Shown here: one piece after another, positions 34,568-53,808 of the stretch | Numbering within the stretch: position 1 is the first letter of the stretch | Layout: each line of letters begins with the position of its first letter | Assembly: GCA_027491915.1 (NCBI GenBank) | Contig: JAOZGC010000002.1 | Span: 443,344 to 507,343 of the forward strand | Source of the DNA: Thermoproteota archaeon | GTDB lineage: Archaea; Korarchaeota; Korarchaeia; Korarchaeales; Korarchaeaceae | DNA length: 64,000 nt | Reading direction: 5' to 3' | The notes under the pieces: model-generated | What the model was told of the DNA's origin: nothing | The model's input: the letters and a program-made list of their open reading frames with translations, nothing else | Database searches by the model: none | Position numbers and translations under genes: made by a program

Positions 34568-35518
34568 GTGCCCTTGTCTGGCCTCGATCTGTCCGGCCTC
34601 AGGTGCGTCGCCTTCGCCGGGAAGGGCGGGGTGGGGAAGACCACCTGCTCCGCGGCCCTGGCCCTGGCCCTATCCAGGGGCGGAGAGAGGGTGCTCCTCG
34701 TCTCCAGCGACCCGGAGCCCTCCATCTCCGACCTGTTCGGAGTCGATGTCAGGGGGAGGCCCAGGGAGGTCGCCCCGAACCTCGAGGCCGTGGAGCTGGA
34801 CGGCGACTCCGTGCTCGAGATGTGGAGAGAGAGGTACGGGGAGGAGGTGTACCGGGTGGTGAGCGGGTTCATCCCGGTCGGCCGGGAGATCGTGGACTAC
34901 GTGGCCGGGGCCCCTGGGATAGCCGAAGAGTTCTCTCTGGCATACCTCTTGGATTTCTGGGAGTCGGGAAATTTCGACAGGATCGTGTGGGACACCGCCC
35001 CGGCCGGGGGAACCCTCTCCCTCCTCCGGCTGGAGCAGACATTCTACGATCACCTGGGGGAAGCGGCCGGGCTGTTCCTCAGGATCAGGGACGCGCTCGA
35101 CAGGATCCGCCGCGGGGGTTGGGAGGGGGGGAGGGGTCCGCTGGAGATTATAGGGGGGTGGAGGAACCTGCTTGGCAGGGTGTTGGGGATGCTCAGGTCC
35201 GACCGCCTGGGCGCGCTGGTCGTCTCCGAGCCCGAGGCGCTCTCGGCCGCCCAGGCCCTCAGGATCGCCGACCGGTTGGAGGAGTTCGGGGTGAGGGTGG
35301 CGGGCCTCGTGATAAACGGACTGATCTCGGAGGACCTGGTCAGATCCTGCCCGCGCCTCGAGGCGAGGCTGCGCGGACAGGGTGAGGCGGTCTCGAGGCT
35401 CCTGCTGGGGAGGATGTGGCCCCAGGTGGTCGAGGTTCCCCTGATGCCCCGGGACATCTCTTCTCGGACCGACCTGCGGCCCGTGGCCGAGGCCCTGATG
35501 GGGGGTGGCCAGCCTTGA
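34568..35518 (+). CDS. ArsA/Get3-family ATPase
   Basis: 316 aa from a GTG. The deviant Walker A AGKGGVGKTT is at about 18-27, switch I SDPEPSISDLFG (for DPAHSLSD) near 56, and switch II WDTAPAGGTLSLL (for DTAPTGHTLRLL) near 141. VVSEPEALSAAQA is a further family block. Homologues act in arsenite efflux or tail-anchored protein targeting; no ars genes lie here. The last four bases (TTGA) are shared with the start of the downstream AOR gene, so the two are translationally coupled. A maturation role for that enzyme is possible but only inferred. Confidence 0.9.
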   Translation: MPLSGLDLSGLRCVAFAGKGGVGKTTCSAALALALSRGGERVLLVSSDPEPSISDLFGVDVRGRPREVAPNLEAVELDGDSVLEMWRERYGEEVYRVVSGFIPVGREIVDYVAGAPGIAEEFSLAYLLDFWESGNFDRIVWDTAPAGGTLSLLRLEQTFYDHLGEAAGLFLRIRDALDRIRRGGWEGGRGPLEIIGGWRNLLGRVLGMLRSDRLGALVVSEPEALSAAQALRIADRLEEFGVRVAGLVINGLISEDLVRSCPRLEARLRGQGEAVSRLLLGRMWPQVVEVPLMPRDISSRTDLRPVAEALMGGGQP

Positions 35519-37293
35519 GGGGTTGGACCGGCAGGCTCCTGAGGGTGGACGCCGGGTCCGGAGACGTGTGGACGGAGGAGATACCGGCGGAGGTGCTCAG
35601 GTCTCTCCTGGGGGGGAAGGGGTTGGGAGCCTACCTGCTCCACAGGCTGGCTCCGCCGGGCGCCGACCCCCTGGGTCCCGACAACCCGATCATATTCGCC
35701 GTGGGGCCCCTGACCGCCCTGTTCCCGGGGTGCGGGAGGTACGCCGTGGTCACCAAGTCCCCGATGACCGGGTACTTCCTCGACTCCCACGCGTCCGGCA
35801 ACCTGGGAGCGGAGATCAAGCTGGCCGGCTTCGACGCGGTGGCGATCACGGGGTCGGCCCCGGTTCCCAGCTACCTGCTGGTAGAGTCCGGCGAGGGGGA
35901 GCTCGTGGAGGCCCCTTGGCTGGCGGGGGCCGACGTTTACGACGCCCACGACCGGGTCGCCTCGCGCGAGCCCGGCGCGTCGGTGGCCGTCGTCGGCCCG
36001 GCGGCGGAGAGGCTCGTCAGGTTCTGCGTGGTCCACTCCGAGAGGCTCCACGCGGCGGGCAGGGGAGGGGCCGGGACCGTCATGGCATCGAAGGGGCTGA
36101 AGGCCCTGGCGGCCAGGGGGTCCGAGGCCCCGGCCGCGGCCGACCCGGAGGCCCTGCTGTCGCTCTGGTCCGCCGTGGAGTCCAGGTACTCGGGCAGGTG
36201 GGGCCCAGCCAACGATGGGACCACCGGGGCGGTTGAAGACGCCCAGGAGCTCGGCATGCTCCCGACGAGGAACTTCTCCACGACCAGCTTCGAGTTCGCG
36301 GACAGGTACTCGGCCGATGAGGTCAGGAGGTACAGGGCGGCCGACCTGTCCTGCTTCGCCTGCCCCAGGGCCTGCGTGAAGCTGCACAGGCTGCCCGACG
36401 GGACCGTGACGGCCGTCAGGTACGAGGGCATGGCCATGCTCGGATCGAACCTGGGCCTCGAGGACCCGAGGGACATGATCCGCCTGTACGAGAGGTGCAA
36501 CAGGCTGGGAATGGACGTGATATCCGCCGGGTCGGCCATGGCCCTGGCGGCGGAGGCCGCGGAGATGGGCCTGATAGAGGGGGAGTTCTCAGATCTTAGG
36601 TTCGGGGACGCCGAGGGCTTCCTCAGGCTGGCCGACGCCATAGCGAGGAGGGAGGGGATCGGGGACCTGCTGGCCGAGGGGGCCGCCAGGGCCGCGGCGA
36701 GGCTGGGGGTCCCGGAGCTCGCGGTCCACGTTAAGGGGCTGGACGTCCCGGCCTGGGACCCAAGGGGGCGGCTCGGCCTGGGGCTGAGCTACGCCACCGC
36801 CGACGTGGGCGCCTCCCACCTCAGGGGGTGGCCCTCGTCCCCCGAGAAGCCGGACCGCAGCGCCCTGGACGTGGTGGAGTCCATGGTCAGGAGCAGGGAC
36901 CAGAAGGCCGTCGCCGACAGCCTGGTGATATGCTCCTTCCTGGACGTGGGGCTGGGCGAGTACGCGGAGGCCCTGGAGGCCGCCGCCGGGGAGAGGTACT
37001 CGGAGGAGGACCTCCTCCGGGTCGGGTGGAGGGTGGAGACCCTGACCAGGCTGTTCAACCTCAGGGAGGGGTTGGACCCGGGATCCGAGGACGTCCTCCC
37101 TCCCAAGCTCTGGAAGCCCGTGCCGGACGGGCCCTCCAAGGGGAGAAGGGCGTTCGTCAGCGAGGAGGACTTCAGGGCCTGCCTGAGGAAATTCTACCTC
37201 ATCAGGGGGTGGGACGAGCGTGGGAGGCCCACGGGGGAGACGGTCAGGTCCCTGGGAATAGACCGGCTGCTCCGGGACCAGATCCGGCGGTAG
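35515..37293 (+). CDS. Aldehyde ferredoxin oxidoreductase-family tungsten enzyme (AOR 1)
   Basis: 592 aa from a TTG overlapping the ArsA-like gene. The N-terminal LLGGKGLGAYLL matches the pterin-binding region. CFACPRAC gives CxxCxxxC and a later DSLVICSF gives the fourth Cys of the single [4Fe-4S] cluster. YEGMAMLGSN contains the catalytic-site Glu and ASHLRG a conserved His. Such enzymes oxidise aldehydes to acids with ferredoxin, using tungsten bound to two pterins. Substrate is unknown; it is clearly diverged from the second AOR in this window. Confidence 0.92.
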   Translation: MRGWTGRLLRVDAGSGDVWTEEIPAEVLRSLLGGKGLGAYLLHRLAPPGADPLGPDNPIIFAVGPLTALFPGCGRYAVVTKSPMTGYFLDSHASGNLGAEIKLAGFDAVAITGSAPVPSYLLVESGEGELVEAPWLAGADVYDAHDRVASREPGASVAVVGPAAERLVRFCVVHSERLHAAGRGGAGTVMASKGLKALAARGSEAPAAADPEALLSLWSAVESRYSGRWGPANDGTTGAVEDAQELGMLPTRNFSTTSFEFADRYSADEVRRYRAADLSCFACPRACVKLHRLPDGTVTAVRYEGMAMLGSNLGLEDPRDMIRLYERCNRLGMDVISAGSAMALAAEAAEMGLIEGEFSDLRFGDAEGFLRLADAIARREGIGDLLAEGAARAAARLGVPELAVHVKGLDVPAWDPRGRLGLGLSYATADVGASHLRGWPSSPEKPDRSALDVVESMVRSRDQKAVADSLVICSFLDVGLGEYAEALEAAAGERYSEEDLLRVGWRVETLTRLFNLREGLDPGSEDVLPPKLWKPVPDGPSKGRRAFVSEEDFRACLRKFYLIRGWDERGRPTGETVRSLGIDRLLRDQIRR

Positions 37294-39309: not shown

Positions 39310-40557
39310 TCAGGACCTATCAGACGGGACCAGACCCAGGACCTCCAGATCCCCCAGGGATCGACCCTCGCCGATCATGGGGATCGCCGCCGCGACCGGG
39401 CGCCTGGAGCCGGCCCAGCCCACGGCTTCCAGGCCCAGGACCCTGTCGCTCCCCCTCTCCACCACCGCCAGGTAGTCGGCCCCGTCGCCGTACCACCAGC
39501 CGACCCCCCCGGGCCTCCTCTCAGACCTCAGGGTGACCACCTCGTGGGGCACCCCGAGGGCCCTGGCCTCGGCCCCGCTCAGGCCGACGCTCGTCACCTC
39601 GATGCCGAGCACGACCTCCGCCTGCCTCCTCACGAACCCCCGGTACGAGGCCCCGGCCCCGGCCGCGTTCAGCCCGGCGATCGTCCCGGACAGGTAGGCC
39701 ACGCTCCCCACCGGCCTGTAAGTCCTCTCCCCGGACGGGAGGTCGAAGCTCTCGGCGCAGTCCCCGGCGGCGTAGATCCCCTCCCCGGCCCTCGCCCGCC
39801 TGTCCACCCTGACGGCCCCCCTGATCCCCCTCGCGAGTTCCGGGACGTCCCCCGGGACGGTCGGCCTGACCCCGGTGGCGACGACCACCAGGTCCGCCGG
39901 GATCGCCGTCCCGCCGGCCACCACCTCCCGGACCCTCCCGTCCCCCCGGACCGACTCCAGCGCCGCGCCCTCCATCACCCGAACCCCGTCGGCCTCGAGC
40001 GCCGCCCTTATCCTATCGGAGAGCGGCGGGTCCAGGACCGTCCACATGACGCTCAGCATCTCTATCAGAGTCACCTTCAGCCCGGCCCTCGCCAGGTGGG
40101 CGGCCATCTTGACCCCTATGAGCCCCGCCCCGACCACCGCGGCCCGGACTCCGGGCTCGATCCCCCCCCTGAGGGAGAACGCGTCCCCGATTCCCCTGAA
40201 GGTGTGGACCCCGGCCAGATCGATCCCCCCGACGGGGGGGACCCAGGCCGAGGCGCCGGTCGCCAGGACTAGTGCGCCGTACTCTACCTCCTCCCCGCCC
40301 ACGGCGATAGCGCCCCCCTCCTCGAACCCGGCCCTCCTCCCGACCCTGACGTCGACGCCGGCCCTCCTCAGCTCGGCTCCCAGCGTGTCTATCTCGGAGG
40401 GGGGGAGCCCCTCCATCACGGAGAATATGTCGGGCCTCCTGTAGGGGGGCTCGTCCCCGACCAGCACGACCCTCAGCCCTGGCTCCCTCCTCTTGGCCGC
40501 CAGGGCCGCGGCGGCGCCGGCGACCCCGGCCCCCACCACCAGGACGTCCGCCCTCAA
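39310..40557 (-). CDS. FAD-dependent pyridine nucleotide oxidoreductase (AorC-like)
   Basis: 415 aa from a TTG. Two Rossmann motifs, VVGAGVAGAAAAL near 7 and VVGAGLIGVKMA near 145, bind FAD and NAD(P)H; ATGxxP-type VATGVRP and YAAGDCAES complete the class I disulfide-reductase fold. No CxxxxC redox pair is present, so it is an NADH oxidase/ferredoxin-reductase-like type. moaD precedes it by four bases. With the polyferredoxin and AOR transcribed divergently next door, it resembles AorC of bacterial AOR complexes, which passes electrons to NAD+. Confidence 0.85.
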   Translation of the reverse strand: MRADVLVVGAGVAGAAAALAAKRREPGLRVVLVGDEPPYRRPDIFSVMEGLPPSEIDTLGAELRRAGVDVRVGRRAGFEEGGAIAVGGEEVEYGALVLATGASAWVPPVGGIDLAGVHTFRGIGDAFSLRGGIEPGVRAAVVGAGLIGVKMAAHLARAGLKVTLIEMLSVMWTVLDPPLSDRIRAALEADGVRVMEGAALESVRGDGRVREVVAGGTAIPADLVVVATGVRPTVPGDVPELARGIRGAVRVDRRARAGEGIYAAGDCAESFDLPSGERTYRPVGSVAYLSGTIAGLNAAGAGASYRGFVRRQAEVVLGIEVTSVGLSGAEARALGVPHEVVTLRSERRPGGVGWWYGDGADYLAVVERGSDRVLGLEAVGWAGSRRPVAAAIPMIGEGRSLGDLEVLGLVPSDRS

Positions 40558-40561
40558 GGGC

Positions 40562-40846
40562 TCACCCGCCGCCCACCGGCGGGAGGACGTCTATCACTGA
40601 CCCCTCCGGCAGCTCCTCGTCCAGGGACTGCGGCAGCCTGAGCACCCTCCCGTCCATCACAAGGGTGAGGTGCTCCCTGACCTTCCCGCCGTCGTCGAAC
40701 ACCGCGCCGGCCTTGGGGCCGAGCCTGGACCTGAGGGCCTCCAGCGCGGCCCCCAGCCTCGGGGGGGAACCCCCGTCCACCTCAACCTCCCTGGACCCTA
40801 TTATCTCCCTGGCGGTCAGGTAGAACCTGAACCTGACCCTGCCCAT
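40562..40846 (-). CDS. moaD: MoaD-like sulfur carrier
   Basis: 94 aa from an ATG fitting the promoter; a start about 30 codons earlier exists but is less likely. The beta-grasp pattern and the C-terminal Gly-Gly-Gly end (PPVGGG) are typical of MoaD/ThiS. Adenylated and thiolated at its C-terminal Gly, it supplies sulfur for molybdopterin or tungstopterin. It is located between AOR-related genes, as in bacterial aor clusters, so it probably serves the tungsten cofactor. Confidence 0.88.
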   Translation of the reverse strand: MGRVRFRFYLTAREIIGSREVEVDGGSPPRLGAALEALRSRLGPKAGAVFDDGGKVREHLTLVMDGRVLRLPQSLDEELPEGSVIDVLPPVGGG

Positions 40847-40874
40847 GCTCTCCCCGACCCAGACTTCCCCGGGC

Positions 40875-40885
40875 GATAGAAAAAC
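40875..40885 (-). promoter_or_regulatory. TATA-like element before moaD
   Basis: GTTTTTCTATC on the minus strand, centred about 33 bp before the ATG at 40846. Confidence 0.45.
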
Positions 40886-40997
40886 CCCGCGCATCCGGTC
40901 CCGGTCGTCCGACTCCACCCCCGGGTCCGGCCCCACGTGGGGTGACCGGGCGGGTCTGGCGGGTGCCCCGGAGCCGGACCGGCCTGACCTGCTAAGG

Positions 40998-41008
40998 GGT
41001 TAAATCCA
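40998..41008 (+). promoter_or_regulatory. TATA-like element before the polyferredoxin gene
   Basis: GGGTTAAATCC is centred about 33 bp before the ATG at 41036. Together with the moaD element it makes the divergent control region of the AOR set. Confidence 0.45.
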
Positions 41009-41035
41009 ACCCGGGGAGCCCGATCCGGTGATCCC

Positions 41036-41542
41036 ATGGCCAAGCTGATGACGCTCATGGTCCTGCCGGAGAGGTGCACCGGCTGCAGGACCTGCGAGAA
41101 CGTCTGCTCCTACTACCACGAGGGGTCCTTCAACCCGGCCAGGTCCAGGATCCAGGTGGTCAGGGACGTGATCCGCGGAGTCAACGTCCCCCTCGTCTGC
41201 CAGCAGTGCGAAGACGCCCCCTGCGTGGCGGCCTGCCCGACCGGGGCCCTGAGCAGGGACGCCGAGAGGGGGCTGGTGGAGATAGACTACTCCAGGTGCA
41301 TAGGGTGCAAGACCTGCGTCTCCGTGTGCCCGTTCGGCGGCATGTCCACGGATCCGGTGACCAACAGGCCGATAAAGTGCGACTTCTGCGGCGGGGATCC
41401 CCAGTGCGTGAAGCACTGCGTTCCGGGCGCCCTGCTGTACGTCCCCGTCACGGCCGCCAACGTGCTGCAGAAGAGGAGGGTGCTGGAGAGGATACCCCAG
41501 TTCGTGGAGGTGGCCCTCCCGAAGCTGCCGGAGGTGGGCTGA
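41036..41542 (+). CDS. Polyferredoxin with four [4Fe-4S] sites (AorA-like)
   Basis: 168 aa with sixteen Cys in four groups of four: RCTGCRTCENVC, VCQQCEDAPCVAACP, RCIGCKTCVSVCP and KCDFCGGDPQCVKHC. This is the plan of DMSO-reductase/HycB-type electron-transfer subunits and of AorA. It would carry electrons from the AOR encoded directly downstream (TTG one base after the stop) to the FAD protein encoded divergently. No signal peptide, so cytoplasmic. Confidence 0.93.
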   Translation: MAKLMTLMVLPERCTGCRTCENVCSYYHEGSFNPARSRIQVVRDVIRGVNVPLVCQQCEDAPCVAACPTGALSRDAERGLVEIDYSRCIGCKTCVSVCPFGGMSTDPVTNRPIKCDFCGGDPQCVKHCVPGALLYVPVTAANVLQKRRVLERIPQFVEVALPKLPEVG

Positions 41543-41543
41543 G

Positions 41544-43475
41544 TTGGCGCTGGGCGGGTACGCCGGCCGCTACCTGGAGGTGGACCTCACCTCCGGTAGG
41601 TGGGTCGTCAGGGAGCTCCCCGGGAGGTGGGCCGTCGAGTACATAGGGGGGACGGGGTTCGCCGCCAGGTACCTCTGGGACCACGTCGGTCCGGGTGTGG
41701 ACCCCCTCTCCCCCGAGAACGTCCTGGTGGTGGCCACCGGCCCGGCTACGGGCTCGGCCGCGCCCATGAGCGGGAGGTTCGTCATTGCGTCCAAGGCCCC
41801 GCTCACCGGGATATGGGGGGAGTCCCACGCCGGGGGTCACTTCGGGCCGGCCCTGAAGTTCGCCGGCTACGACCTCGTCGCCGTCACCGGCAGGAGCGAG
41901 TCCCCGGTCTATCTCTGGATAGACGACGACAGCGTGGAGATAAGGGACGCCTCGGACCTCTGGGGGAAGACCACGACGGAGACCTTCTCGGCCATAAGGG
42001 AGGAGCTGGGCGATCCGGAGGTCCAGGCCGCCGTCATAGGCCCGGCCGGGGAGAGGCTGGTCAGGTTCGCCAACGTGATGGCCGACACGTGCGACGCCGC
42101 CGGCAGGACCGGCATGGGGGCCGTGATGGGGTCCAAGAACCTGAAGGCCGTGGCGGTCAGGGGGAGCCGCGGGGTGGAGCCGGCCTCGGACGAGTTCTAC
42201 GACGTGGTGAACGGGCTCTACGAGAAGGCCACCCGGGGGGAGTGGAGCAGGATAGCCGACGAGACCATCAGGGGGTACGGCACCCCCTACCTGATAGACG
42301 TCATGACCCAGATAGGGAGGCTCCCGACCAAGAACCACTACACGGGCCTGTTCGACCGGGCCGAGGACATAAACGCCACCGCCCTTGAGAGGTACAGGAT
42401 CAGCAAGAAGTCCTGCTTCAACTGCTTCCTCCAGTGCAAGTACGTCCACTACGTCCCGTCGGGGAGGTACGCCGGGACCCTGACCTGCGGCCCCGAGTAC
42501 GAGGCCCTGGTGGCCCTGGGATCCAACGTCATGGTGGGCAACCTGGAGGCCATACTCCACTACAACAGGCTGTGCAACGACTACGGCATGGACGTCATAA
42601 CGGCGGGGAAGATAGTCTCCTGGCTGATGGAGATCTACGAGAGGGGGCTCGTCTCGGAGGACGACCTCGGGGGGATCAGGCCCGTCTGGGGAGACGAGGA
42701 GGTGGTCGAGACCCTGATACACGCCATGGCCAGGAGGGAGGGGATCGGGGACCTGCTGGCCGAGGGCGGCCTGAGGGCGGCCAAGAAGATCGGGAGGGGA
42801 ACCGAGAGGTACCTGATCCACGTCAAGGGGCTGGAGGCCTCCGCCCAGGACGGCAGGAGCCACAAGTCCATAGGGCTGGCCCACGCCGTCAACGTCAGGG
42901 GCGCCGATCACCTGAGGGGTCTCTGCACCTACGACGAGCTCCCCTGGGCCGTGAAGTACGCGTACGAGAGGTTCGGCGAGGAGGAGGCCAGGAAGATGGT
43001 GGTGGACGACAGGCTGGATCCCCGGGGGAAGGGCTATCTAACCTGGCTCACCGAGAACTTCTACTCCGTCGTGGACTCCATAATCACCTGCAAGTACGGC
43101 ACCATGTGGCCCATGATCTACTACTACGACGACTTCGCCCCCATGCTGAGGACCCTCACCGGGCTGGAAGAGCTGGGAGACGAGAGGCGCCTGAGGATCG
43201 CGGGGGAGAGGATATACATGCTCAGGAGGGCCTTCAACGCCAGGGAGGGGGTTGGCAGGTCTCAGGACACCCTGAACCCCAGGTTCACCGAGGAGCCGAT
43301 GCCGGAGGGGCCGGGCAGGGGTCAGGTGGTGGAGCTGGACGTTATGCTCCCCGAGTACTACGAGTACAGGGGGCTGGACCTGGAGACCGGGTGGCCCAAG
43401 AGGGAGAAGCTGATCCAGCTCGGCCTGGGGGACGTGGCCGAGGAGCTGGCCGGGATGGGGAGGCTGGCCGAGTGA
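41544..43475 (+). CDS. Aldehyde ferredoxin oxidoreductase-family tungsten enzyme (AOR 2, AorB-like)
   Basis: 643 aa from a TTG. YIGGTGFAARYL is the pterin region; CFNCFLQC gives CxxCxxxC and SIITCKYG the fourth cluster Cys. GPEYEALVALGSN contains the catalytic Glu and ADHLRG the conserved His. It should oxidise aldehydes to carboxylic acids with a tungsten bis-pterin. Directly follows a four-cluster ferredoxin, and MoaD plus an FAD oxidoreductase are divergent, so it probably forms an AorABC-type complex. Confidence 0.94.
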   Translation: MALGGYAGRYLEVDLTSGRWVVRELPGRWAVEYIGGTGFAARYLWDHVGPGVDPLSPENVLVVATGPATGSAAPMSGRFVIASKAPLTGIWGESHAGGHFGPALKFAGYDLVAVTGRSESPVYLWIDDDSVEIRDASDLWGKTTTETFSAIREELGDPEVQAAVIGPAGERLVRFANVMADTCDAAGRTGMGAVMGSKNLKAVAVRGSRGVEPASDEFYDVVNGLYEKATRGEWSRIADETIRGYGTPYLIDVMTQIGRLPTKNHYTGLFDRAEDINATALERYRISKKSCFNCFLQCKYVHYVPSGRYAGTLTCGPEYEALVALGSNVMVGNLEAILHYNRLCNDYGMDVITAGKIVSWLMEIYERGLVSEDDLGGIRPVWGDEEVVETLIHAMARREGIGDLLAEGGLRAAKKIGRGTERYLIHVKGLEASAQDGRSHKSIGLAHAVNVRGADHLRGLCTYDELPWAVKYAYERFGEEEARKMVVDDRLDPRGKGYLTWLTENFYSVVDSIITCKYGTMWPMIYYYDDFAPMLRTLTGLEELGDERRLRIAGERIYMLRRAFNAREGVGRSQDTLNPRFTEEPMPEGPGRGQVVELDVMLPEYYEYRGLDLETGWPKREKLIQLGLGDVAEELAGMGRLAE

Positions 43476-45139: not shown

Positions 45140-46558
45140 TCACGGGTTGAGGAGCCCGGCCAGCAGCTGGGCCGGTCCCAGACCCAGCAGCACGGTCAGG
45201 GCGGCCGCGGCCGCGGCGACCAGCACCGCCGGATCGCCGACCCTCTCCCGGGGCATGCCCTCCCTGGGGCCGCCGGCGAAGTACATGTACCTTATGACCT
45301 GGGCGTAGTAGCCCACCGACACCCCGCTGTTCAGGACCCCCGCCAGGGCCAGCCACGGGGCGGCGTCTGCCACGGAGAGGAAGAGGTAGGTGAACTTGCT
45401 CCAGAACCCTATGAGGGGCGGCATGCCCATGAGGCTGAGCATCAGCACCGTGACGGCCGCGCCCAGCGTCGGCATCCTCCTCCCCAGCCCCCTGATGTCC
45501 TCCAACCCGACGCCCACCCCCTCCCTCACCAGGTAGGCCAGGGCGACGAATATCCCGACCTTGGCCAGCACGTAAGTGGTCATGTGGAGGGCCACCCCCT
45601 GAAGCCCCAGGGCCCGGGCGGCTGGGTCGGACGCGGCGGCGAGCCCCACCAGCAGGTAGCCGGCGTGGGCTATGCTGCTGTAGGCCATCATCCTCTGGAC
45701 GTTCCCCTGGACCAGCGCGGCCACGTTCCCGAACGTCATGGTGGCCACGGCGAACAGCGCCAGCGAGGGGAGCCATGAGGCGAGCCCTGGCGCCATGGGG
45801 ACGACGACCCTCAGGAGTCCGGCGACGGCGGCCATCTTGACCACCCCCGCTATGTAGGCCACCAGTATCGGGTGGACGCCGCCGTAGACGTCCGGGAGCC
45901 AGCCGTGGAACGGGAAGACCCCCAGCTTGAAGCCGAAGGCGGCCACCAGCAGCAGGATCCCCAGGGCCGCCATCGTCGGGTCGACCCCCGCCGGCAGCCC
46001 GGCCAGCCGGGCGGTCCCGGTCAGCCCCACGGCCACCCCCAGCCCGTATATCAGCAGCGAGGAGGAGACGGCGCCCATGATCCCGTACTTCATGGCCCCC
46101 TGCAGGGAGGCCCCGTCCTTCCTGATCCCGGCCAGAACGTAGGAAGCCACCGCCACCAGGGCCCACGCGGCCACCAGGGTCACCGCGTCGGCCACGTGGA
46201 CCATGACGTGGACCCCGGCCAGGGCCAGGAGCATCAGGGCGTAGGCGCTGTAGGAGGTCGGCCAGGACCCCACCTCCGGCGCGGAGGCCCCGGCGACCAG
46301 CAGGGCCCCGAGGGTCGCCAGGAGCCCCAGGTAGGAGGAGTAGGGGTCGAGCCTGATCGCCCCGGAGAATATCTCGACGGGTCCCGCGGCGGTCAGCTCA
46401 GCCGCCAGCGCGCAGGAGAGGGCCAGGGCGGCGGCCAGCGTCGCCAGCGCGACGGCCGCCGGGGTCCTCCTCCCCCTCCCCTCCAGGAGGGGCAGGATCA
46501 GTCCCGGCGCCGTCAGCACGACCATCAGCACCTCGAATGTGGTCGCCGGATCCGCCAT
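45140..46558 (-). CDS. nuoN: NADH dehydrogenase-like complex I subunit N
   Basis: 472 aa with about fourteen hydrophobic helices. LFPFHGWLPDVYGG-type (VFPFHGWLPDVYGGVH) and SIAHAGYLLVGLAA are antiporter-type subunit motifs; the Lys and His in the mid-membrane proton path are kept. Proton-pumping subunit of the membrane arm. Last gene of the nuo cluster, starting three bases after the nuoL stop. The order ends L-N, which identifies it as N rather than M. Confidence 0.93.
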   Translation of the reverse strand: MADPATTFEVLMVVLTAPGLILPLLEGRGRRTPAAVALATLAAALALSCALAAELTAAGPVEIFSGAIRLDPYSSYLGLLATLGALLVAGASAPEVGSWPTSYSAYALMLLALAGVHVMVHVADAVTLVAAWALVAVASYVLAGIRKDGASLQGAMKYGIMGAVSSSLLIYGLGVAVGLTGTARLAGLPAGVDPTMAALGILLLVAAFGFKLGVFPFHGWLPDVYGGVHPILVAYIAGVVKMAAVAGLLRVVVPMAPGLASWLPSLALFAVATMTFGNVAALVQGNVQRMMAYSSIAHAGYLLVGLAAASDPAARALGLQGVALHMTTYVLAKVGIFVALAYLVREGVGVGLEDIRGLGRRMPTLGAAVTVLMLSLMGMPPLIGFWSKFTYLFLSVADAAPWLALAGVLNSGVSVGYYAQVIRYMYFAGGPREGMPRERVGDPAVLVAAAAAALTVLLGLGPAQLLAGLLNP

Positions 46559-46561
46559 GCC

Positions 46562-48688
46562 TCACACCACCCACACCAGGACGTACACGAGCAGGGCCAG
46601 CCCGGCGAAGAACAGGAGCAGGTAGTGGTTGACCGCGCCCGTCTGCAGCCTCCTGAACTGCCTCCCGATCCAGAGGGCCAGGGCTGGGAGGGCCTCGTTG
46701 TAGCCGCGGTCCACCACCCCCCTCTCGAAGGTCCAGCCCAGCTCGCTGGCCCCCCAGGCGGAAGCCGGCACGAGCCTGTGGTAGAACCCGTCGACCACGA
46801 TGCTCTCGAAGTATCGGAACCCCGCCCTCGAGAGCCACGCGAACCCCCCGACTATCACCCTGTAGTAGAGGCTGTTGACGTACCACCTGTCGTAGAGGAA
46901 CTCCCTGAGGGCCCGGAGCGGCCCGGGGCCGGCCGCGGCCGCCAGCAGCCTCCCGCCCGCCGGCGTCTGGTAGGCCACCCACCCCAGGGCCACCCCGCCG
47001 AACACCATCGAGAGCGAGGCGGCGAGCATCCCGGGCTCGAGGTGCACCTCGAATCCGGGGACCTCCCCCAGGGCAAGCACGTTTCTGGAGACGGCCTCCA
47101 GGATTCGGGGGCCGACGAGCGGCCAGGCGACGCCGAGCAGGAGGGTGGCCGCCGCCAGCGTCAGGTAGGGAGCCAGCATGAGCGGGCGGGCCTCGTGCAG
47201 CCTGTGCTCCCTCCTGAGGCGGGACACGTTGTCCGACTCCTCGTAGAAGAAGGTCCTCAGCACAAGGCGGGTGGAGTAGAAGGCGGTCAGCCCGGCCGTG
47301 ACCACGCCCAGCGCGTACGCGGCCGCGATCCCCGACTCGGCGGCGGCCTCGACGACCGCGTCCTTGCTCCAGAAACCCATCAGCGGGGGGACCCCGGCCA
47401 GGCTGAGCGCGGTCACCAGCATGGAGGCCATGGTGAGCCTCATGGGATCGGACAGGCGCCCCATGTCGTCCAGGTACTTCGAGTGGACCGCGTGTATCAC
47501 GGCCCCGGCCCCCAGGAACAGAGCCGCCTTGAACATGGCGTGGCTCATGAAGTGGGAGAACCCGGCCATGAGCCCGGAGGAGAACTCCCCCATGAGCCCC
47601 GCGCTCCCCAGGGCCAGGAACATGTACCCGAGCTGGGAGGCCGTGGAGAAGGCCAGTACGAGCTTCAATTCCCGGGCCACTAGGGCCTGGGTGGCCATGA
47701 AGAACGCGGTGAAGGCCCCCGCCAGGGCCACCACCTCGAAGTAGGTGGAGACGGCCTGGGACGCCGCCGGGACGGCGGCCAGCTCGGCCTGGGCCAGCTT
47801 GAATATGGGGCCGAACCTCAGCAGGAAGTAGACCCCCGCCTTGACCATCGTGGCGGCGTGTATCAGGGCGCTGACCGAGGTGGGCCCGGTCATCGCCGTG
47901 ACCAGCCACTCGTGGAACGGGAACTGGGCGCTCTTCGCCATGGCCCCGAGGGAGAAGGTCAGCAGGAAGGGCAGCAGGAGCCCCCTGGCGGCCAGCCAGG
48001 AAGCCCACTCCCCGGCCGACGACGCTATCTCGGGGATGCTGAAGGTGCCCGTCAGGAGGTAGAGGACCCCTATCCCCACCAGGAAGCCGACGTCCCCGAG
48101 CCTGGTGAACACCAGGGCCCTGAGGCCGCTGTGACTCGGGGTGAACCACATCGGGACTCCCAGGGCCCTCCTCCCGACGTCCCCCACGCACCTCTCCTCC
48201 TCGTCGGTGTGCCAGTGTCCTATCAGGGCGTAGGACGCCAGGCCGGTCCCCTCCCATCCCAGGAACATCACCAGCAGGTTGTCGGCCATGACGAGCAGGA
48301 GCATGCTGCCCACGAAGAAGTCGAAGAAGAACCAGTACCTGGTCCTCCCGGGATCCTCTGCCATGTACTCCAGGCTGTAGATCCCTATCAGGAAGCACAG
48401 CCAGGATATTATCAGGGCCATCGCGGCGGACAGGGTGTCCACGTAGACCCCGGCGTCCAGCCCCAGGCTGGGCACCCAGGGGACCGACCACGTCACCAGG
48501 CCCTCTGGGGAGGAGAAGACGTCCCACGCCAGGATCGAGGCCGAGAGGGCCGACACCCCAAGCAGGGATGCGGCCAGCGCGTCCCTCCCCCTGTCGAGCC
48601 TGGACAGGAGCAGGGACAGGACGGCCCCGGCGTAGGGGAGGGCCCAAGTGACGACGGCCGCGACCTGAGCCGGGTCCACCGTGACCAC
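46562..48688 (-). CDS. nuoL: NADH dehydrogenase-like complex I subunit L
   Basis: 708 aa, about sixteen hydrophobic helices. FPFHEWLVTAMTGPTSVSALIHAATMVKAGVYFL is the antiporter core with the key Lys and His residues, and ends with a long C-terminal helix region as in NuoL. An inserted WHTDEEERCVGDVGRR stretch near 158 is a feature I associate with archaeal versions. It pumps protons at the distal membrane arm. Start overlaps the nuoM 3' end closely. Confidence 0.95.
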   Translation of the reverse strand: MVTVDPAQVAAVVTWALPYAGAVLSLLLSRLDRGRDALAASLLGVSALSASILAWDVFSSPEGLVTWSVPWVPSLGLDAGVYVDTLSAAMALIISWLCFLIGIYSLEYMAEDPGRTRYWFFFDFFVGSMLLLVMADNLLVMFLGWEGTGLASYALIGHWHTDEEERCVGDVGRRALGVPMWFTPSHSGLRALVFTRLGDVGFLVGIGVLYLLTGTFSIPEIASSAGEWASWLAARGLLLPFLLTFSLGAMAKSAQFPFHEWLVTAMTGPTSVSALIHAATMVKAGVYFLLRFGPIFKLAQAELAAVPAASQAVSTYFEVVALAGAFTAFFMATQALVARELKLVLAFSTASQLGYMFLALGSAGLMGEFSSGLMAGFSHFMSHAMFKAALFLGAGAVIHAVHSKYLDDMGRLSDPMRLTMASMLVTALSLAGVPPLMGFWSKDAVVEAAAESGIAAAYALGVVTAGLTAFYSTRLVLRTFFYEESDNVSRLRREHRLHEARPLMLAPYLTLAAATLLLGVAWPLVGPRILEAVSRNVLALGEVPGFEVHLEPGMLAASLSMVFGGVALGWVAYQTPAGGRLLAAAAGPGPLRALREFLYDRWYVNSLYYRVIVGGFAWLSRAGFRYFESIVVDGFYHRLVPASAWGASELGWTFERGVVDRGYNEALPALALWIGRQFRRLQTGAVNHYLLLFFAGLALLVYVLVWVV

Positions 48689-48689
48689 C

Positions 48690-50240
48690 TCATCCCAGGA
48701 TCGAGCTCACCGCGGCGCTCAGCGGATCGAGCACCACGCCCGGCCAGAGGAACAGCAGGATCCCGGCGGCCGCCACGACCGCCATCGGACCCAGCAGGGT
48801 CCAGCCGGCCTCCTCTGCCCCCTCGGTCCGATCCGTCGGCTGGCCGAAGAATATCCTCTTCATGGTCAGGAAGGCGTAGGCCGTGGAGAGCCCTATGCCG
48901 ACGAGTAGGATCAGCACCATGGCCGAGAAGTAGGCGGCCGACCCGCCCACGGCGGTGCCGGCCAGCCCGGTCAGTATCAGGATCTCGCTCCAGAGCCCCA
49001 GGGACGGGGGTATCCCGGTTATGTGCATGAACCCCAACAGGGCCAGGGACGACGTCATCGGCATCCTGGAGGCCAGCCCCCCCATCTTGGATATGCTCCT
49101 GAGGCCGTCCATCTGCACTATCAGGACCCCGGCCGTCGAGAAGAGCAGGGCCTTCCCCACCGCGTGGGCCGCGTAGTGGGTCATGGCCCCGGCGACGCCG
49201 GCCGGGGTCAGGGTCGACACCCCGGCCAGTATGTAACCCATCTGGGACACGCTGGAGTAGGCCAGCAGCCTCTTGAAGTCGTCCTGGGCGAGGGCCATCA
49301 GCCCCCCGTAGACTATGGTGAACAGCCCCAGGGGCAGGGTGTAGGTGGCCAGGCGGGCGAACTCGGCCGGGAACATGGGGTACACTATCCTGACCAGGGC
49401 GTAGCCCGCGATGCCTATCAGGTTGGGGGACAGCAGGGCCGAGACGGGGGTGGGCGCCTCGGCGTGCGCGTACGGAAGCCATATGTGGACCCCGAACACC
49501 GCCAGCTTGACGAAGAGCCCGAGGCAGAGGGCCGCCACCACCGGCATCCTCAGGCCGGCCGGGAGGAGGGCCCCAACCTCGACGGGCCGCAGGAGCTCCG
49601 GATCATAGAAGTCGAAGGTCCCGGCCGCAAGCCCGGCGACCAGCGCGCCGACCAAGAAGACCAGGGCACCCACGTGCGTCCATATCAGGTACAGGAGGGC
49701 TATCCTCCCCCGGTTCCCGTATCCGTAGAAGGCTATCAGGAGGAAGCTGGGCAGGAGCGACACCTCCAGGAAGAGGTAGAACTCTATCAGGTTGGTGGAC
49801 AGGACCGTCCCCATCATGGCCGCGGCGAACATGACGTAGAGCATGTAGTAGACGCCCCAGCCGGGCGCACCCCCTCCCTCCTCCCGCTCGAACTCCTCGA
49901 AGCGGTGCTCCATGTACCTCAGGGAGTACACCGAGATCGTCACGGTCACCAGGGCTATGGAGATGGCCAGCGGCGCGCTGAGCCCGTCCAGGAGCATGCT
50001 GAACCTCCCTATGGACTCGGATCGGAAGAACACCGGATCGACGACCGGCCCCCCGAGGCCGAACCTCGCCGCGATCCACGCCACGGCGGCGGCCGGGATC
50101 ATCAGCAGGACGGTCCCGGCGGCCGCGGTCCCCCTCCTGCCCAGGGAATCGTCCAGGAGCGGGAGCGCCAGCGAGATCGCGATGGGGGCGACCACGCTGG
50201 TGAACAGGATGGGACTGTCCAGGATCAACTCACTCACCAC
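48690..50240 (-). CDS. nuoM: NADH dehydrogenase-like complex I subunit M
   Basis: 516 aa, about fourteen hydrophobic helices. VFGVHIWLPYAHAEAPTPVSALLSPNLIGIAGYALVR and YSSVSQMGYILAGV are NuoM antiporter motifs. Membrane-arm proton pump. It overlaps the nuoK 3' end by 11 bp. Identified as M by its position between K and L and by the WLPxAHxEAP motif. Confidence 0.94.
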   Translation of the reverse strand: MVSELILDSPILFTSVVAPIAISLALPLLDDSLGRRGTAAAGTVLLMIPAAAVAWIAARFGLGGPVVDPVFFRSESIGRFSMLLDGLSAPLAISIALVTVTISVYSLRYMEHRFEEFEREEGGGAPGWGVYYMLYVMFAAAMMGTVLSTNLIEFYLFLEVSLLPSFLLIAFYGYGNRGRIALLYLIWTHVGALVFLVGALVAGLAAGTFDFYDPELLRPVEVGALLPAGLRMPVVAALCLGLFVKLAVFGVHIWLPYAHAEAPTPVSALLSPNLIGIAGYALVRIVYPMFPAEFARLATYTLPLGLFTIVYGGLMALAQDDFKRLLAYSSVSQMGYILAGVSTLTPAGVAGAMTHYAAHAVGKALLFSTAGVLIVQMDGLRSISKMGGLASRMPMTSSLALLGFMHITGIPPSLGLWSEILILTGLAGTAVGGSAAYFSAMVLILLVGIGLSTAYAFLTMKRIFFGQPTDRTEGAEEAGWTLLGPMAVVAAAGILLFLWPGVVLDPLSAAVSSILG

Positions 50241-50550
50241 CCTCCCTAAGTCCGTAAACGTCCAGGCTCCCCCTCAACCTGAACATGAGCACGGCCAGCG
50301 AGACCACAACCCCTATCTCCGCGGCCCCCAGGGACACGGCCAGGAGGGCGAGGACGCCGCCCTCCGCGGCCCCAACCCGAGACGCGGAGGTCAGGGCCAG
50401 CAGGGCCAGCAGGGCCGCGTTGAACATCAGCTCCGTGGCCAGGAGCATGCGTATGACGTTCCTCCGCGTGAGGACCCCGTAGAGCCCCACGCAGAACATG
50501 ATCGACGAGACGACCAGGTAGGCGTAGGGGTTCCCAGCGATCGCGATCAC
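50230..50550 (-). CDS. nuoK: NADH dehydrogenase-like complex I subunit K
   Basis: 106 aa, three hydrophobic helices. GLYGVLTRRNVIRMLLATELMFNAALLAL contains the conserved Glu of helix 2 and the Asn, and the third helix has a second Glu (LGAAEIGVVVSLAVL), both part of the proton path. Overlaps nuoJ by four bases. Confidence 0.94.
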   Translation of the reverse strand: MIAIAGNPYAYLVVSSIMFCVGLYGVLTRRNVIRMLLATELMFNAALLALLALTSASRVGAAEGGVLALLAVSLGAAEIGVVVSLAVLMFRLRGSLDVYGLREGGE

Positions 50551-51065
50551 CTGCCGTCACCCCCCTCCCCGCCCCCGTGGGCCTCCCTCCTGGCCAGGGC
50601 CAGCGCCTCTATCATGGTGGCCGCCAGGGCGGCCGCGGCCACCAGCAGGGCGAACCAGTACCTCTCCGTCATCGCCGAGGCCATCTCGGAGATGGGGATT
50701 GCCCCGCTGGCCAGGCTGAGCGACCCCTCCGGCCGGAACAGCAGCGCCAGGGAGGCGAAGATCAGGATCGCCGTGAAGACGGCCGCCCCCCTGGCCTCGG
50801 CCTCCACCGGGGGGGCCTCCCTCATCATGACGACGGAGAATATGATGAACGTCACGGCGGCCCCGACGTAGACCGCGAGCTGGAAGACCGCCACCGCGGT
50901 GAATCCGAGTTCGGCGAAGAGGGCGGCGTTGAACGCCCCGACCATGCCCAGGAACAGGGCGGAGTACACCATGGACCTGGACCTTATCACCATGACCGAG
51001 GACGCCACCGCGCAGGCGGCGGACGCCAGGAAGGCGAGGTCGGCCAGGTCAACCCACGGGCTCAT
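50547..51065 (-). CDS. nuoJ: NADH dehydrogenase-like complex I subunit J
   Basis: 172 aa, five hydrophobic helices. FAELGFTAVAVFQLAVYVGAAVTFIIFSVVMM is the typical third-helix region of NuoJ with its conserved Gly and Tyr (AVYVGA). Overlaps nuoI by 17 bp. The C-terminal end is a short acidic/His tail. Confidence 0.92.
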   Translation of the reverse strand: MSPWVDLADLAFLASAACAVASSVMVIRSRSMVYSALFLGMVGAFNAALFAELGFTAVAVFQLAVYVGAAVTFIIFSVVMMREAPPVEAEARGAAVFTAILIFASLALLFRPEGSLSLASGAIPISEMASAMTERYWFALLVAAAALAATMIEALALARREAHGGGEGGDGR

Positions 51066-51600
51066 ACGATATCCCCCTCCTCTCGTCCATCACGGGCCTG
51101 AGCCTCTTGGGGGGCCTCTCGAACTCCACGGTCGGGGGACCGGCGGCGAACTCCTCCGGCCGGTAGAGCATGTCCTCCACCCTCTCGTACGCGGCGTCGT
51201 GAACCTTGCTGTGCTCCAGGGCCCCGGTCGGGCAGATGTCGACGCAGAAACCGCAGAAGATGCACCTCGCGTAGTCTATCCCCGGATGCCTCTTCGGGGG
51301 GGTCTCGGGCTTCTCCCCCCCGCCCTCGCCCCCGCCCCCTCCCGAGGGCAGGTACATCTTTATGGCGTTCGCGGGGCATATGGTGGCGCAGAGCCCGCAG
51401 CTTATGCACAGGTCCTGGTGGTAGATCAGCATCCCCCTGTACCCGTCGGGCAGCTCTATCACCTCGTCCGGGTACTTCACCGTCATCCTGGGGACCGCGA
51501 TCAGGTACTTGAGCCCGGTCCCGACGGCCTTCAGGTGGCCCCACAGGCTGACCACGGGGTTCCTCCCCCCGCGCCCTCCGACCTCCTCGACTCCGCCCAT
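51049..51600 (-). CDS. nuoI: NADH dehydrogenase-like complex I subunit I, two [4Fe-4S] clusters
   Basis: 183 aa. CISCGLCATICPANA and CIFCGFCVDICPTGA bind two [4Fe-4S] clusters (N6a/N6b). A Gly-rich loop (GGGGEGGGE) lies between the two motifs. It passes electrons toward NuoB. With no NuoEFG here, it may receive electrons directly from ferredoxin or from an F420H2 module elsewhere. Starts close to the nuoH stop. Confidence 0.96.
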   Translation of the reverse strand: MGGVEEVGGRGGRNPVVSLWGHLKAVGTGLKYLIAVPRMTVKYPDEVIELPDGYRGMLIYHQDLCISCGLCATICPANAIKMYLPSGGGGGEGGGEKPETPPKRHPGIDYARCIFCGFCVDICPTGALEHSKVHDAAYERVEDMLYRPEEFAAGPPTVEFERPPKRLRPVMDERRGISYEPVG

Positions 51601-51604
51601 GACC

Positions 51605-52630
51605 TCACGCCCCCGTCAGACCCAACCACGCCGCGCCCATCGAGACGAACACGGACGCGACGGACAGCGGCAGCAGGTAGTGCCAGGCCAGCCTGATGGC
51701 CTGATCCACCCTGTACCTCGGGTAGACTGCCCTCAGGAAGACCCCCAAGGCCATGAGGGCCAGGGCCTTCGCGAACACCACCACGCCCGGCCCGAACGGG
51801 ACGGCCGCCAGCTGGGGCGGGACCGGTTCCCACCCGCCGAGGAACATTATCGAGAACAGGAGGCACAGGACGTAGTACTTCAGGTAGGAGGCCCCCATGG
51901 TCAGGCCGTACATTATGCCGCTGTACTCCGTGAAGGGCCCCATCACCAGCTCGCTCTCGGCCTCCGATATCTCGAACGGGAACCTGGAGGTGGCCAGGAA
52001 GGATATCACCAGGAAGACGAACGCAGCCAGCGGATTCAGCGCCACCCCCCAGGCGGTCTCGGCCTGGACCTCCACCATGTCCACCAGGTCCAACGTCCCG
52101 TAGGCCGCCGCCATGGACAGGGCCGCGACGAAGAGGGGTATCTCGTAGGCCATGGACAGGAACCCCTCCCTCAGTCCCCCTATGAGGGAGAACTTGTTGT
52201 TCCCGGCCCAGCCGATTATCAGGGTCATGGCGGCCCCGAGCGTCAGCAGCGCCAGGACTATCAGCAGGGAGACGTCGCTCCTGATCGCGTAGAACGTGCC
52301 GCTGACCGGGATGGCCACGACCGGGAGGAGCGTCAGCCCGAACAGCAGCGCGGGCCCCATCACGAAGGCCAGCGCGTCGGCCTCCTCCGGGATTATCGGC
52401 TCGGCGAAGAGGTACCTTATCAGGTCCGCCACGAGCTGCGTCGCGCCCCCCAGGTGCCTGAGCACGTAGTAGGGGCCGAACCTCCTCTGAACCTTCGCCG
52501 CCAGCTTCCTCTCGAACCATATTATGAACAGCAGAACGGCGAAGGCGGACACGAGCCCCGGGTATATCAGGGGCACGAACACCCAGGGAGAGAGAAGTAG
52601 ACCCAGGATCCAGCCCAGGGCGCCCATCAC
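51605..52630 (-). CDS. nuoH: NADH dehydrogenase-like complex I subunit H
   Basis: 341 aa, eight hydrophobic helices. IIWFERKLAAKVQRRFGPYYV near the N-terminus (E-R-K-x-A-x-x-Q-x-R-x-G-P) and EAESELVMGPFTEYSGIMYG (E-x-E-S-E-L-x-x-G) are the NuoH quinone-chamber signatures. It joins the soluble arm to the membrane arm. Overlaps nuoD by four bases. Confidence 0.96.
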   Translation of the reverse strand: MMGALGWILGLLLSPWVFVPLIYPGLVSAFAVLLFIIWFERKLAAKVQRRFGPYYVLRHLGGATQLVADLIRYLFAEPIIPEEADALAFVMGPALLFGLTLLPVVAIPVSGTFYAIRSDVSLLIVLALLTLGAAMTLIIGWAGNNKFSLIGGLREGFLSMAYEIPLFVAALSMAAAYGTLDLVDMVEVQAETAWGVALNPLAAFVFLVISFLATSRFPFEISEAESELVMGPFTEYSGIMYGLTMGASYLKYYVLCLLFSIMFLGGWEPVPPQLAAVPFGPGVVVFAKALALMALGVFLRAVYPRYRVDQAIRLAWHYLLPLSVASVFVSMGAAWLGLTGA

Positions 52631-53808
52631 CGATCAGCCTCCGGCGGGAAGTAGTCCAGGCTGCCGTATATCGCCGGGATGTCCGCCACCCTGCAGCCCC
52701 TGGTCAGGTGCGAGAACAGCACCACGTTCCTGAGGGAGGGGGTGACCATCCTCATCCTGTAGGGCCTCGGGCCCCCGTCGCTCACCAGGTAGAACACCGC
52801 CTCCCCCCTGGCCGCCTCCACCCTTGACACGGCCTCCGCGCCCTTCGGCGGCCTGAGGGATGCCAGGATCGCCGGGAACTTGATCCTCCCGGTCTCCCTG
52901 ACGTAGTCCCTCCACTTCGGGGGGATCATCTTGGCGTACCTCTCGGCCAGTATGGGCCCGTCGGGCATGCGCGCCAGGATCTGCCTTATCATTCGGATGC
53001 TCTCCCTGATCTCCCCGACCCTGACCAGCATCCTGGCCATGGAGTCTCCCTCGCTCCTGGTGACCACCTGGAAGTCCAGCTCCGGGTAGGCCGCGTAGGG
53101 CCTCGCCCTCCTGACATCGTAGGCCACTCCGGAGGCCCTGAGGTTGGGTCCGACGACCCCGAGCCTTATGGCGTCCTCGCGCGTGAGGACCCCGACCCCC
53201 TCGAGCCTCGCCCTCGTTACGGGGTTGCTGAAGAAGATCCTGTCGTAGTCCGGCAGCCTCCTCTCCAGGTACCTGAGGGCCTTCTCCATCTCCTCGGCGA
53301 ATCCCGGCGGGAGGTCCCTCCTCACCCCGCCCGGTATCATGTAGGAGTAGGTTATCCTGGCCCCGGTGAGCCTCTTGGCCATCTCTATCATGATCTCCCT
53401 GTCCCCGAAGGCCCACATGAAGGCCGTGGACGAGCCCAGCATTATCCCGTGGATCCCGAGTCCGTAGAGGTGGCTGTGTATCCTGTTCATCTCGGCCAGG
53501 AGGGTCCTGAGCCACTGGGCCCTGGGCGGCGCCTCCACCCCCAGGAGCCTCTCCACCGCCATCACGTACCCCAGGTTGTGGTTGGCGGTGTCGGCCAGGG
53601 GGGGCCTCTCTATCAGCGGGATCGTCTGGAGGTAGGTCTTGGTCTCCGCTATCTTCTCGACCGTCCTGTGGACGTACCCTATGTCCGGCCTCAGCCTGAC
53701 CACGACGTCCCCGTCTACCTCGGCGACCAGCCTCATGTGGCCGGAGGCCGGGTGCTGTGGACCTATCAGCAGCTCGAGAGTCCTCTCCCCGCTCCCGGCG
53801 CCGCTCAT
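52627..53808 (-). CDS. nuoD: NADH dehydrogenase-like complex I subunit D
   Basis: 393 aa. GPQHPASGHMRL (quinone-site loop with conserved His) and HRTVEKIAETKTYLQ open the protein. GPNLRASGVAYDVRRARPYAAY and the final segment YGSLDYFPPEADR are NuoD/hydrogenase large-subunit-like signatures without the nickel-binding Cys. Contacts quinone with NuoB. Overlaps nuoC by four bases. Confidence 0.96.
   Translation of the reverse strand: MSGAGSGERTLELLIGPQHPASGHMRLVAEVDGDVVVRLRPDIGYVHRTVEKIAETKTYLQTIPLIERPPLADTANHNLGYVMAVERLLGVEAPPRAQWLRTLLAEMNRIHSHLYGLGIHGIMLGSSTAFMWAFGDREIMIEMAKRLTGARITYSYMIPGGVRRDLPPGFAEEMEKALRYLERRLPDYDRIFFSNPVTRARLEGVGVLTREDAIRLGVVGPNLRASGVAYDVRRARPYAAYPELDFQVVTRSEGDSMARMLVRVGEIRESIRMIRQILARMPDGPILAERYAKMIPPKWRDYVRETGRIKFPAILASLRPPKGAEAVSRVEAARGEAVFYLVSDGGPRPYRMRMVTPSLRNVVLFSHLTRGCRVADIPAIYGSLDYFPPEADR

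What the first reader, a model, noticed from the sequence alone, without database searches (positions are those of the whole stretch)
39310..43475. AorABC-type aldehyde oxidoreductase set with MoaD in an archaeon
A divergent pair of transcripts encodes an FAD oxidoreductase and MoaD on one side and a four-cluster ferredoxin and AOR on the other. This is the subunit set of bacterial AOR complexes (AorA polyferredoxin, AorB tungsten enzyme, AorC FAD/NAD subunit) such as that of Aromatoleum. The usual archaeal AOR works alone with ferredoxin. If these form one complex, the archaeon could reduce NAD+ directly from aldehydes or reduce acids with NADH.
Basis: partly seen in the sequence, partly recalled or inferred. 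Interest (0 to 1): 0.6.

Follow-up and report, generated by a model that had tools for sequence, protein, structure and literature searches.

The report
Archaeal NAD-linked tungsten oxidoreductase gene set
An archaeon carries, side by side, genes for a tungsten enzyme, its iron-sulfur wire and a flavin protein that could hand the electrons to NAD, resembling a known bacterial enzyme complex but apparently put together separately in archaea.

Summary
The same divergent layout stands in both other genomes that hold the FAD orthologue (another genus, same family).

By subunit content this fits a recently named kind, the Class III WOR (large, four-cluster, and FAD/NAD subunits). The claim of kinship to bacterial AorABC fails. 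The AOR and ferredoxin group with the archaeon's own two-subunit AORs; the FAD protein falls in an archaeal lineage, with the FAD gene that closes a Thermococci AOR-Fd-Fd-FAD operon (10 of 115 genomes) and one from a third family, outside bacterial AorC.

Like AorC, the FAD protein lacks the catalytic cysteine of CoA-disulfide reductase/NADH oxidase, so an electron-transfer role to NAD is the best reading. Complex formation, NAD use and substrate are untested. The AOR's nearest kin sit beside PreA-like and hydantoinase genes, so the substrate may not be a plain aldehyde. Driving acid reduction with NADH alone is uphill and unlikely.

Verdict: parallel archaeal assembly of an NAD-linked tungsten oxidoreductase; a new variant of a known kind.

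The parts
39310..40557 (-). FAD/NAD(P)-binding oxidoreductase, candidate NAD-linking subunit (WorN-like), 415 aa, TTG start 4 bases after the MoaD stop
   Evidence: Pyr_redox_2 1.5e-44; AF2 model pLDDT 92; only Cys is C267, none at the CoADR/Nox catalytic position; orthologues in G001, G005
40562..40846 (-). MoaD/ThiS-like small protein (WorX-like), ends GGG; the longer ORF runs to 40936
   Evidence: ThiS 3.5e-8, TIGR01687 over cut-off; start judged from orthologues
40847..41035 (.). divergent intergenic region between MoaD and ferredoxin
   Evidence: sequence read; no promoter was tested
41036..41542 (+). four-cluster [4Fe-4S] ferredoxin, candidate WorS
   Evidence: 16 Cys; best PDB match 9mqx_E 142.6 bits, then 8c0z_C 114.9
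41544..43475 (+). tungsten aldehyde oxidoreductase-family large subunit, candidate WorL; TTG start 1 base after the Fd stop
   Evidence: AFOR_N/AFOR_C; catalytic and cluster residues intact; PDB 1aor 425 bits, 9mqx_D 418, 8c0z_A 368

Best explanation
The four genes encode an archaeal tungsten oxidoreductase of the Class III layout. The large subunit (41544-43475) oxidises its substrate, probably an aldehyde, at a tungsten-bispterin; electrons pass over its own cluster and the four clusters of the ferredoxin subunit to the FAD of the 39310-40557 protein, which reduces NAD+. MoaD supplies sulfur for the pterin and is not a subunit. The NAD-linking part was assembled in archaea separately from bacterial AorABC. 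Shown: genes, intact cofactor residues, absence of the catalytic Cys, conserved neighbourhood, tree positions. Inferred: physical complex, direction of electron flow, NAD use, substrate, metal.
For: Layout kept in 3 of 3 genomes with the FAD orthologue (in one search the three score 682-851 bits against 264 for the next of 394 genomes, though the model was built from these three). FAD relatives sit beside Fd and AOR in 10 of 10 Thermococci orthologues (of 115 genomes) and in G600 of a third family. Of 80 FAD-family loci fetched, 12 had an AOR in the flank and all 12 are AorABC; the other 68 had none (54 of the 68 hold at least 10 kb). Catalytic Cys of CoADR/Nox: present in 15 of 15 rows labelled Nox; absent in 3 of 3 Kor, 8 of 8 Thermococci, 6 of 6 AorC and 7 of 8 Bacillota AOR-adjacent rows. 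Large-subunit ligands of the homodimer iron are replaced (H339/E389), as in bacterial AorB; catalytic E320/H456 and Cys291/294/298/516 are kept. No NuoF/HydB-type PF01512 in the genome, so P0001 is the only NAD link seen next to an AOR.
Against: No biochemistry and no predicted complex (single chains only). The FAD and Fd-AOR genes are on opposite strands, so co-expression is not assured. P0001's fold and best sequence matches are CoA-disulfide reductase/NADH oxidase, though the alignment behind the model was rich in those. The FAD is the least conserved member (50% against AOR 77%), which can mean looser constraint. The AOR's nearest kin are two-subunit enzymes, several of them next to PreA/hydantoinase genes, so neither NAD use nor an aldehyde substrate follows from kinship.
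Confidence: 0.6

Rival explanations
1. The AOR and ferredoxin form an ordinary two-subunit, ferredoxin-linked Class II enzyme; the FAD protein is a separate soluble NADH:ferredoxin reductase that is only co-regulated, or not related in function.
For: Opposite strands; P0003/P0004 group with the archaeon's own Fd-AOR pairs; the FAD fold resembles soluble reductases such as CoADR and BphA4.
Against: Neighbourhood kept across two genera, related FAD genes in AOR operons of Thermococci and beside Fd/AOR in G600; the Cys-less lineage is tied to AOR loci.
Confidence: 0.27
2. The set is a true member of the bacterial AorABC family received by lateral transfer.
For: Same subunit types and a MoaD gene as in Aromatoleum (PMC6365974 passages).
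Against: AOR, Fd and FAD trees each place the bacterial subunits in clades of their own, apart from the Kor proteins; AU test of Kor + Burkholderiales AorC as one clade p 0.0147.
Confidence: 0.04
3. The set works in ring chemistry of nucleobases or hydantoins (reduction, or oxidation of a ring or of a ring-derived aldehyde), not in general aldehyde oxidation; the FAD protein may also serve a PreA-like partner.
For: P0004's clade includes AORs beside PreA-like and hydantoinase/allantoinase-like genes in G000, G001, G005, G080 and G100, with a Bmp-type transporter in the first three; in G600 the FAD relative lies between a PreA-like gene and Fd/AOR.
Against: The window's own cluster has no such gene beside it; no substrate was tested.
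Confidence: 0.18
4. FAD protein plus MoaD are a tungstopterin maturation pair rather than an electron-transfer arm.
For: The two are adjacent on one strand; the 2026 classification set aside FAD genes that also bear a ThiS designation as probable pterin-synthesis genes (PMC13328260, passage).
Against: In Thermococci and G600 the related FAD gene is next to Fd (and AOR), and no MoaD match over 50 bits was found in L299 or L297.
Confidence: 0.06

Closest known systems
AorABC of Aromatoleum aromaticum (PDB 8c0z), the only characterised Class III WOR
   Same: Four-cluster Fd, AOR large subunit, FAD/NAD subunit without redox Cys, MoaD-like gene nearby, homodimer-iron ligands replaced
   Different: All three subunits lie in other clades; the FAD gene is divergent rather than last in one operon; filament formation and NAD use unknown here
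Thermococci AOR-Fd-Fd-FAD operon (10 of 115 genomes)
   Same: FAD subunit from the same Cys-less archaeal lineage (99/94; 98/90 with two more rows)
   Different: One co-directional operon with two ferredoxins; its AOR is a long, separate branch
Class II WOR (WorLS), e.g. P. furiosus WOR5/ASOR, and the archaeon's own Fd-AOR pairs
   Same: Large plus four-cluster small subunit; closest kin of P0003/P0004 are the archaeon's own pairs
   Different: No FAD gene seen beside them
Class IV bifurcating WOR (PDB 9mqx; that this entry is Class IV is recalled)
   Same: Best PDB match of the Fd (142.6 bits)
   Different: Needs NuoF/HydB-type subunits; PF01512 found 0 times in this genome

Membership tests
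Class III WOR (WorL-WorS-WorN) | WorL with both AFOR domains and a [4Fe-4S] cluster site | tested here: met
   PF02730 and PF01314; Cys291/294/298/516
Class III WOR (WorL-WorS-WorN) | WorS with four [4Fe-4S] clusters in the gene neighbourhood | tested here: met
   16 Cys, adjacent on the same strand
Class III WOR (WorL-WorS-WorN) | FAD-binding WorN gene in the neighbourhood | tested here: met
   Pyr_redox_2, neighbouring but divergent; layout kept in 3 of 3 genomes
Class III WOR (WorL-WorS-WorN) | The three proteins form one complex that reduces NAD+ | not testable with these tools
   only single chains could be predicted
Bacterial AorABC subfamily | Large subunit within the bacterial AorB clade | tested here: not met
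   12 AorB one clade (100), P0004 in another part of the tree
Bacterial AorABC subfamily | Fd within the AorA clade | tested here: not met
   AorA one clade (100), P0003 with Korarchaeal pairs (91, weak deeper nodes)
Bacterial AorABC subfamily | FAD subunit within the AorC clade | tested here: not met
   AU p 0.0147
Bacterial AorABC subfamily | Loss of the two homodimer-iron ligands | tested here: met
   H339/E389 in P0004
Bacterial AorABC subfamily | C-terminal helix of the Fd that drives filaments | tested here: inconclusive
   model pLDDT 46.8 only
CoA-disulfide reductase / NADH oxidase | Catalytic cysteine near residue 42 | tested here: not met
   Pro42 in P0001; Cys in 15 of 15 Nox-labelled rows
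Class IV bifurcating WOR | NuoF/HydB-type WorB | tested here: not met
   PF01512 0 matches in G000 (91% complete) with controls ringing in 9 of 14

The most novel reading that the evidence does not exclude
Archaea evolved their own lineage of NAD(H)-linking flavin subunits for tungsten oxidoreductases, in parallel with bacterial AorC, and in Korarchaeota-like archaea it sits on a large-subunit clade that works in nucleobase or hydantoin ring catabolism, an activity not reported for the WOR family in the papers I saw.
Probability: 0.2. Interest if true: 0.75.

Novelty: new variant of a known kind. Interest (0 to 1): 0.45.

Why it matters
Only one Class III WOR is characterised and it is bacterial (PMC13328260, section 10). 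A second, separately assembled NAD-linked type in anaerobic archaea would show that coupling these very low-potential enzymes to NAD arose more than once, would bring oxidation of aldehydes (or of ring compounds) into the NADH pool of organisms in which no NuoF-type subunit was found, and would offer heat-stable NAD-linked tungsten enzymes for biocatalysis.

Tried and rejected
Rejected: bacterial AorABC membership (three trees); CoADR/Nox/peroxidase function of P0001 (no catalytic Cys); Class IV bifurcation (no PF01512).

The structure of P0003 came out at pLDDT 46.8 and is not used. 8c0z_E was not among the 50 rows shown of the Foldseek or VIA-align lists; this excludes nothing, and the alignment behind the model was rich in Nox-type rows. 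The first 108-row FAD tree joined Kor, one Thermococci row and an own paralogue by long branches, so I rebuilt it. Unrooted, the FAD trees show three groups (archaeal AOR-linked, Nox/CoADR, bacterial AorC side); they do not tell which two are nearest. Trees with Thermococci left out, or with Kor and G600 left out, gave the same three-way split. The support for G600 with Kor is 91/79 (100/99 without Thermococci and G581). G581's Cys-less FAD gene has no AOR, Fd, MoaD or PreA match in the 18 kb around it (L298), so not every member of that lineage is AOR-linked. The AU test of Kor with Nox was not finished. Literature searches listed no paper on this archaeal set; one search returned only the English word 'worn' in the rows shown. 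Supplementary tables of PMC13328260, which could list archaeal Class III members, were not open to me.

Rows dropped before counts: FAD trees use 15 of the Nox-type rows, 6 of 12 AorC, 8 or 5 of 10 Thermococci, and leave out long rows L033, L174, L177, L185; the AOR tree leaves out 8 short or duplicate rows. The label 'Nox' is mine: FAD-family rows without an AOR neighbour, chosen before the Cys was looked at.

Recalled, from no call: the names E332/H383 of P. furiosus AOR as iron ligands (I counted the positions in the alignment; PMC6365974 speaks of two residues without naming them), E313/H448 as its catalytic residues, what PDB 9mqx is, and the genome length of Korarchaeum cryptofilum.

Full report
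Observation. The ferredoxin has 16 Cys in four groups, the AOR keeps the cluster Cys and the two catalytic residues, and MoaD ends in GGG. Within each strand the genes are a few bases apart. The window lies in G000:C4, a 1.12-Mb, 91%-complete genome with six AOR genes.

Host. One same-family genome (G007) is a single contig of 1,590,757 bases, which matches my recollection of Korarchaeum cryptofilum; I therefore call the family Korarchaeota-like ('Kor'), a recalled identification.

Conservation. Of 24 genomes in the family (G000 and 23 relatives), three hold the FAD orthologue (about 50% identity). In a 394-genome search the three score 682-851 bits and the next 264 (the search model was built from these three). 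In all three the layout is MoaD-FAD diverging from Fd-AOR (in G005 the AOR runs over a contig end, with the whole gene on another contig). A fourth genome (G006) has the AOR (69%), but its contig ends inside that gene, so its neighbours are unknown.

Trees. AOR (61 rows): P0004 and its three orthologues form a clade inside an archaeal group with the genome's own Fd-AOR pairs and those of G080/G100; the 12 Burkholderiales AorB are one clade elsewhere, with Azospirillum and Thermococci AORs nearby. Fd (48 rows): P0003 groups with Korarchaeal pairs, AorA apart. FAD (46 rows, careful): Kor and the Thermococci AOR-adjacent rows together 99/94; with a G600 row and a G581 row added 98/90. The 12 reference loci are AorABC: Fd, AOR and FAD stand in that order, and the one FAD protein checked (L124) matches 8c0z_E at 555 bits. 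AU tests: Kor + Burkholderiales AorC as one clade p 0.0147; all four AOR-linked groups as one clade p 1.6e-7, so AOR-linked FAD subunits do not form one clade.

The FAD partner. P0001 has a single Cys, C267, and Pro where CoADR/Nox have the catalytic Cys; of rows compared, Cys is present in 15 of 15 Nox-labelled and absent in 3/3 Kor, 8/8 Thermococci, 6/6 AorC, 7/8 Bacillota AOR-adjacent. In AorC this position is Met42 near the FAD (PMC10413684, passages). Arg41, which holds the FAD in AorC, is kept (alignment). The model (pLDDT 92) has a CoADR-like fold.

Thermococci and G600. In the Thermococci class 10 of 115 genomes carry an orthologue of the G033 FAD (54-100% identity) and in 10 of 10 two Fd and an AOR stand beside it; an eleventh, a fragment at a contig start (G185), cannot be judged. 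A second locus was read in full (L299). In G600, of a third family, the FAD gene stands with Fd, and an 81-aa fragment of an AOR N-terminus lies between the two; an AOR (cut by the contig end) diverges from them, and PreA-like and amidohydrolase-like genes lie on the other side (the amidohydrolase call is mine, from its sequence and place). The fragment hints at an older Fd-AOR-FAD order; this is inference. Against a strict link, the Cys-less FAD gene of G581 has no AOR in the 18 kb around it.

Mechanism. By analogy with AORAa: substrate oxidation at tungsten, electrons over five clusters to FAD, then NAD+. No NuoF-type protein was found in the genome, so NADH from this enzyme would not enter the complex-I-like operon at 45140-54299 by the usual module. 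Reduction of acids by NADH is uphill by nearly 200 mV for benzoate (values from PMC9295118, passages); it would need coupling for which I saw no parts.

Substrate. P0004's closest kin outside its orthologues lie next to PreA-like and allantoinase/dihydropyrimidinase-like genes in five genomes, with a Bmp-type transporter in G000, G001 and G005 and with carbamate kinase and YgeY in G005. The window's own cluster lacks these. The substrate is open.

Literature. Seen: PMC13328260 (abstract, outline, passages, section 10): Class III has 9 of 92 clades and one characterised member, AaAOR; WorX is ThiS-like. PMC6365974 (abstract, outline, passages), PMC10413684 (passages), PMC12096430 (passages) and PMC9295118 (passages). 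Searches for the archaeal set; none of the listed titles describes it.

Noticed in passing
L029 (G000:C4:404000-422000), L102, L103, L101, L195, L297: Fd-AOR pairs with PreA-like and hydantoinase/allantoinase-like genes, and in the Kor genomes a Bmp-type ABC transporter (carbamate kinase and YgeY in G005): a possible tungsten-dependent nucleobase or hydantoin catabolic cluster kept across archaeal families.
   Followed up: partly
window 35512-37293(+): A second AOR-family gene without a four-cluster ferredoxin beside it; its orthologue also lies a few kb from the cluster in G001 and G005 (L027, L028).
   Followed up: no
window 45140-54299(-): Complex-I-like operon (antiporter-like subunits, 4L, chain 6, Fe-S, NuoH, 49K, 30K), with no PF01512 subunit found in the genome.
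   Followed up: partly
L104, L105, L106 (Azospirillum plasmids): Fd-AOR-MoaD followed by NuoL/antiporter/NuoB/NuoH-like genes: an AOR that seems tied to a membrane complex-I-like module.
   Followed up: no
L297 3749-3994(-): 81-aa fragment of an AOR N-terminus between Fd and FAD genes in G600; a remnant or an assembly effect.
   Followed up: partly
L029 11832-13877(+): The own AOR beyond the hydantoinase has Asp in place of the first cluster Cys, as described for P. furiosus WOR5/ASOR (one Asp ligand; PMC12096430, passage).
   Followed up: no
window 1-64000: No tRNA gene found in the whole window by ARAGORN.
   Followed up: no
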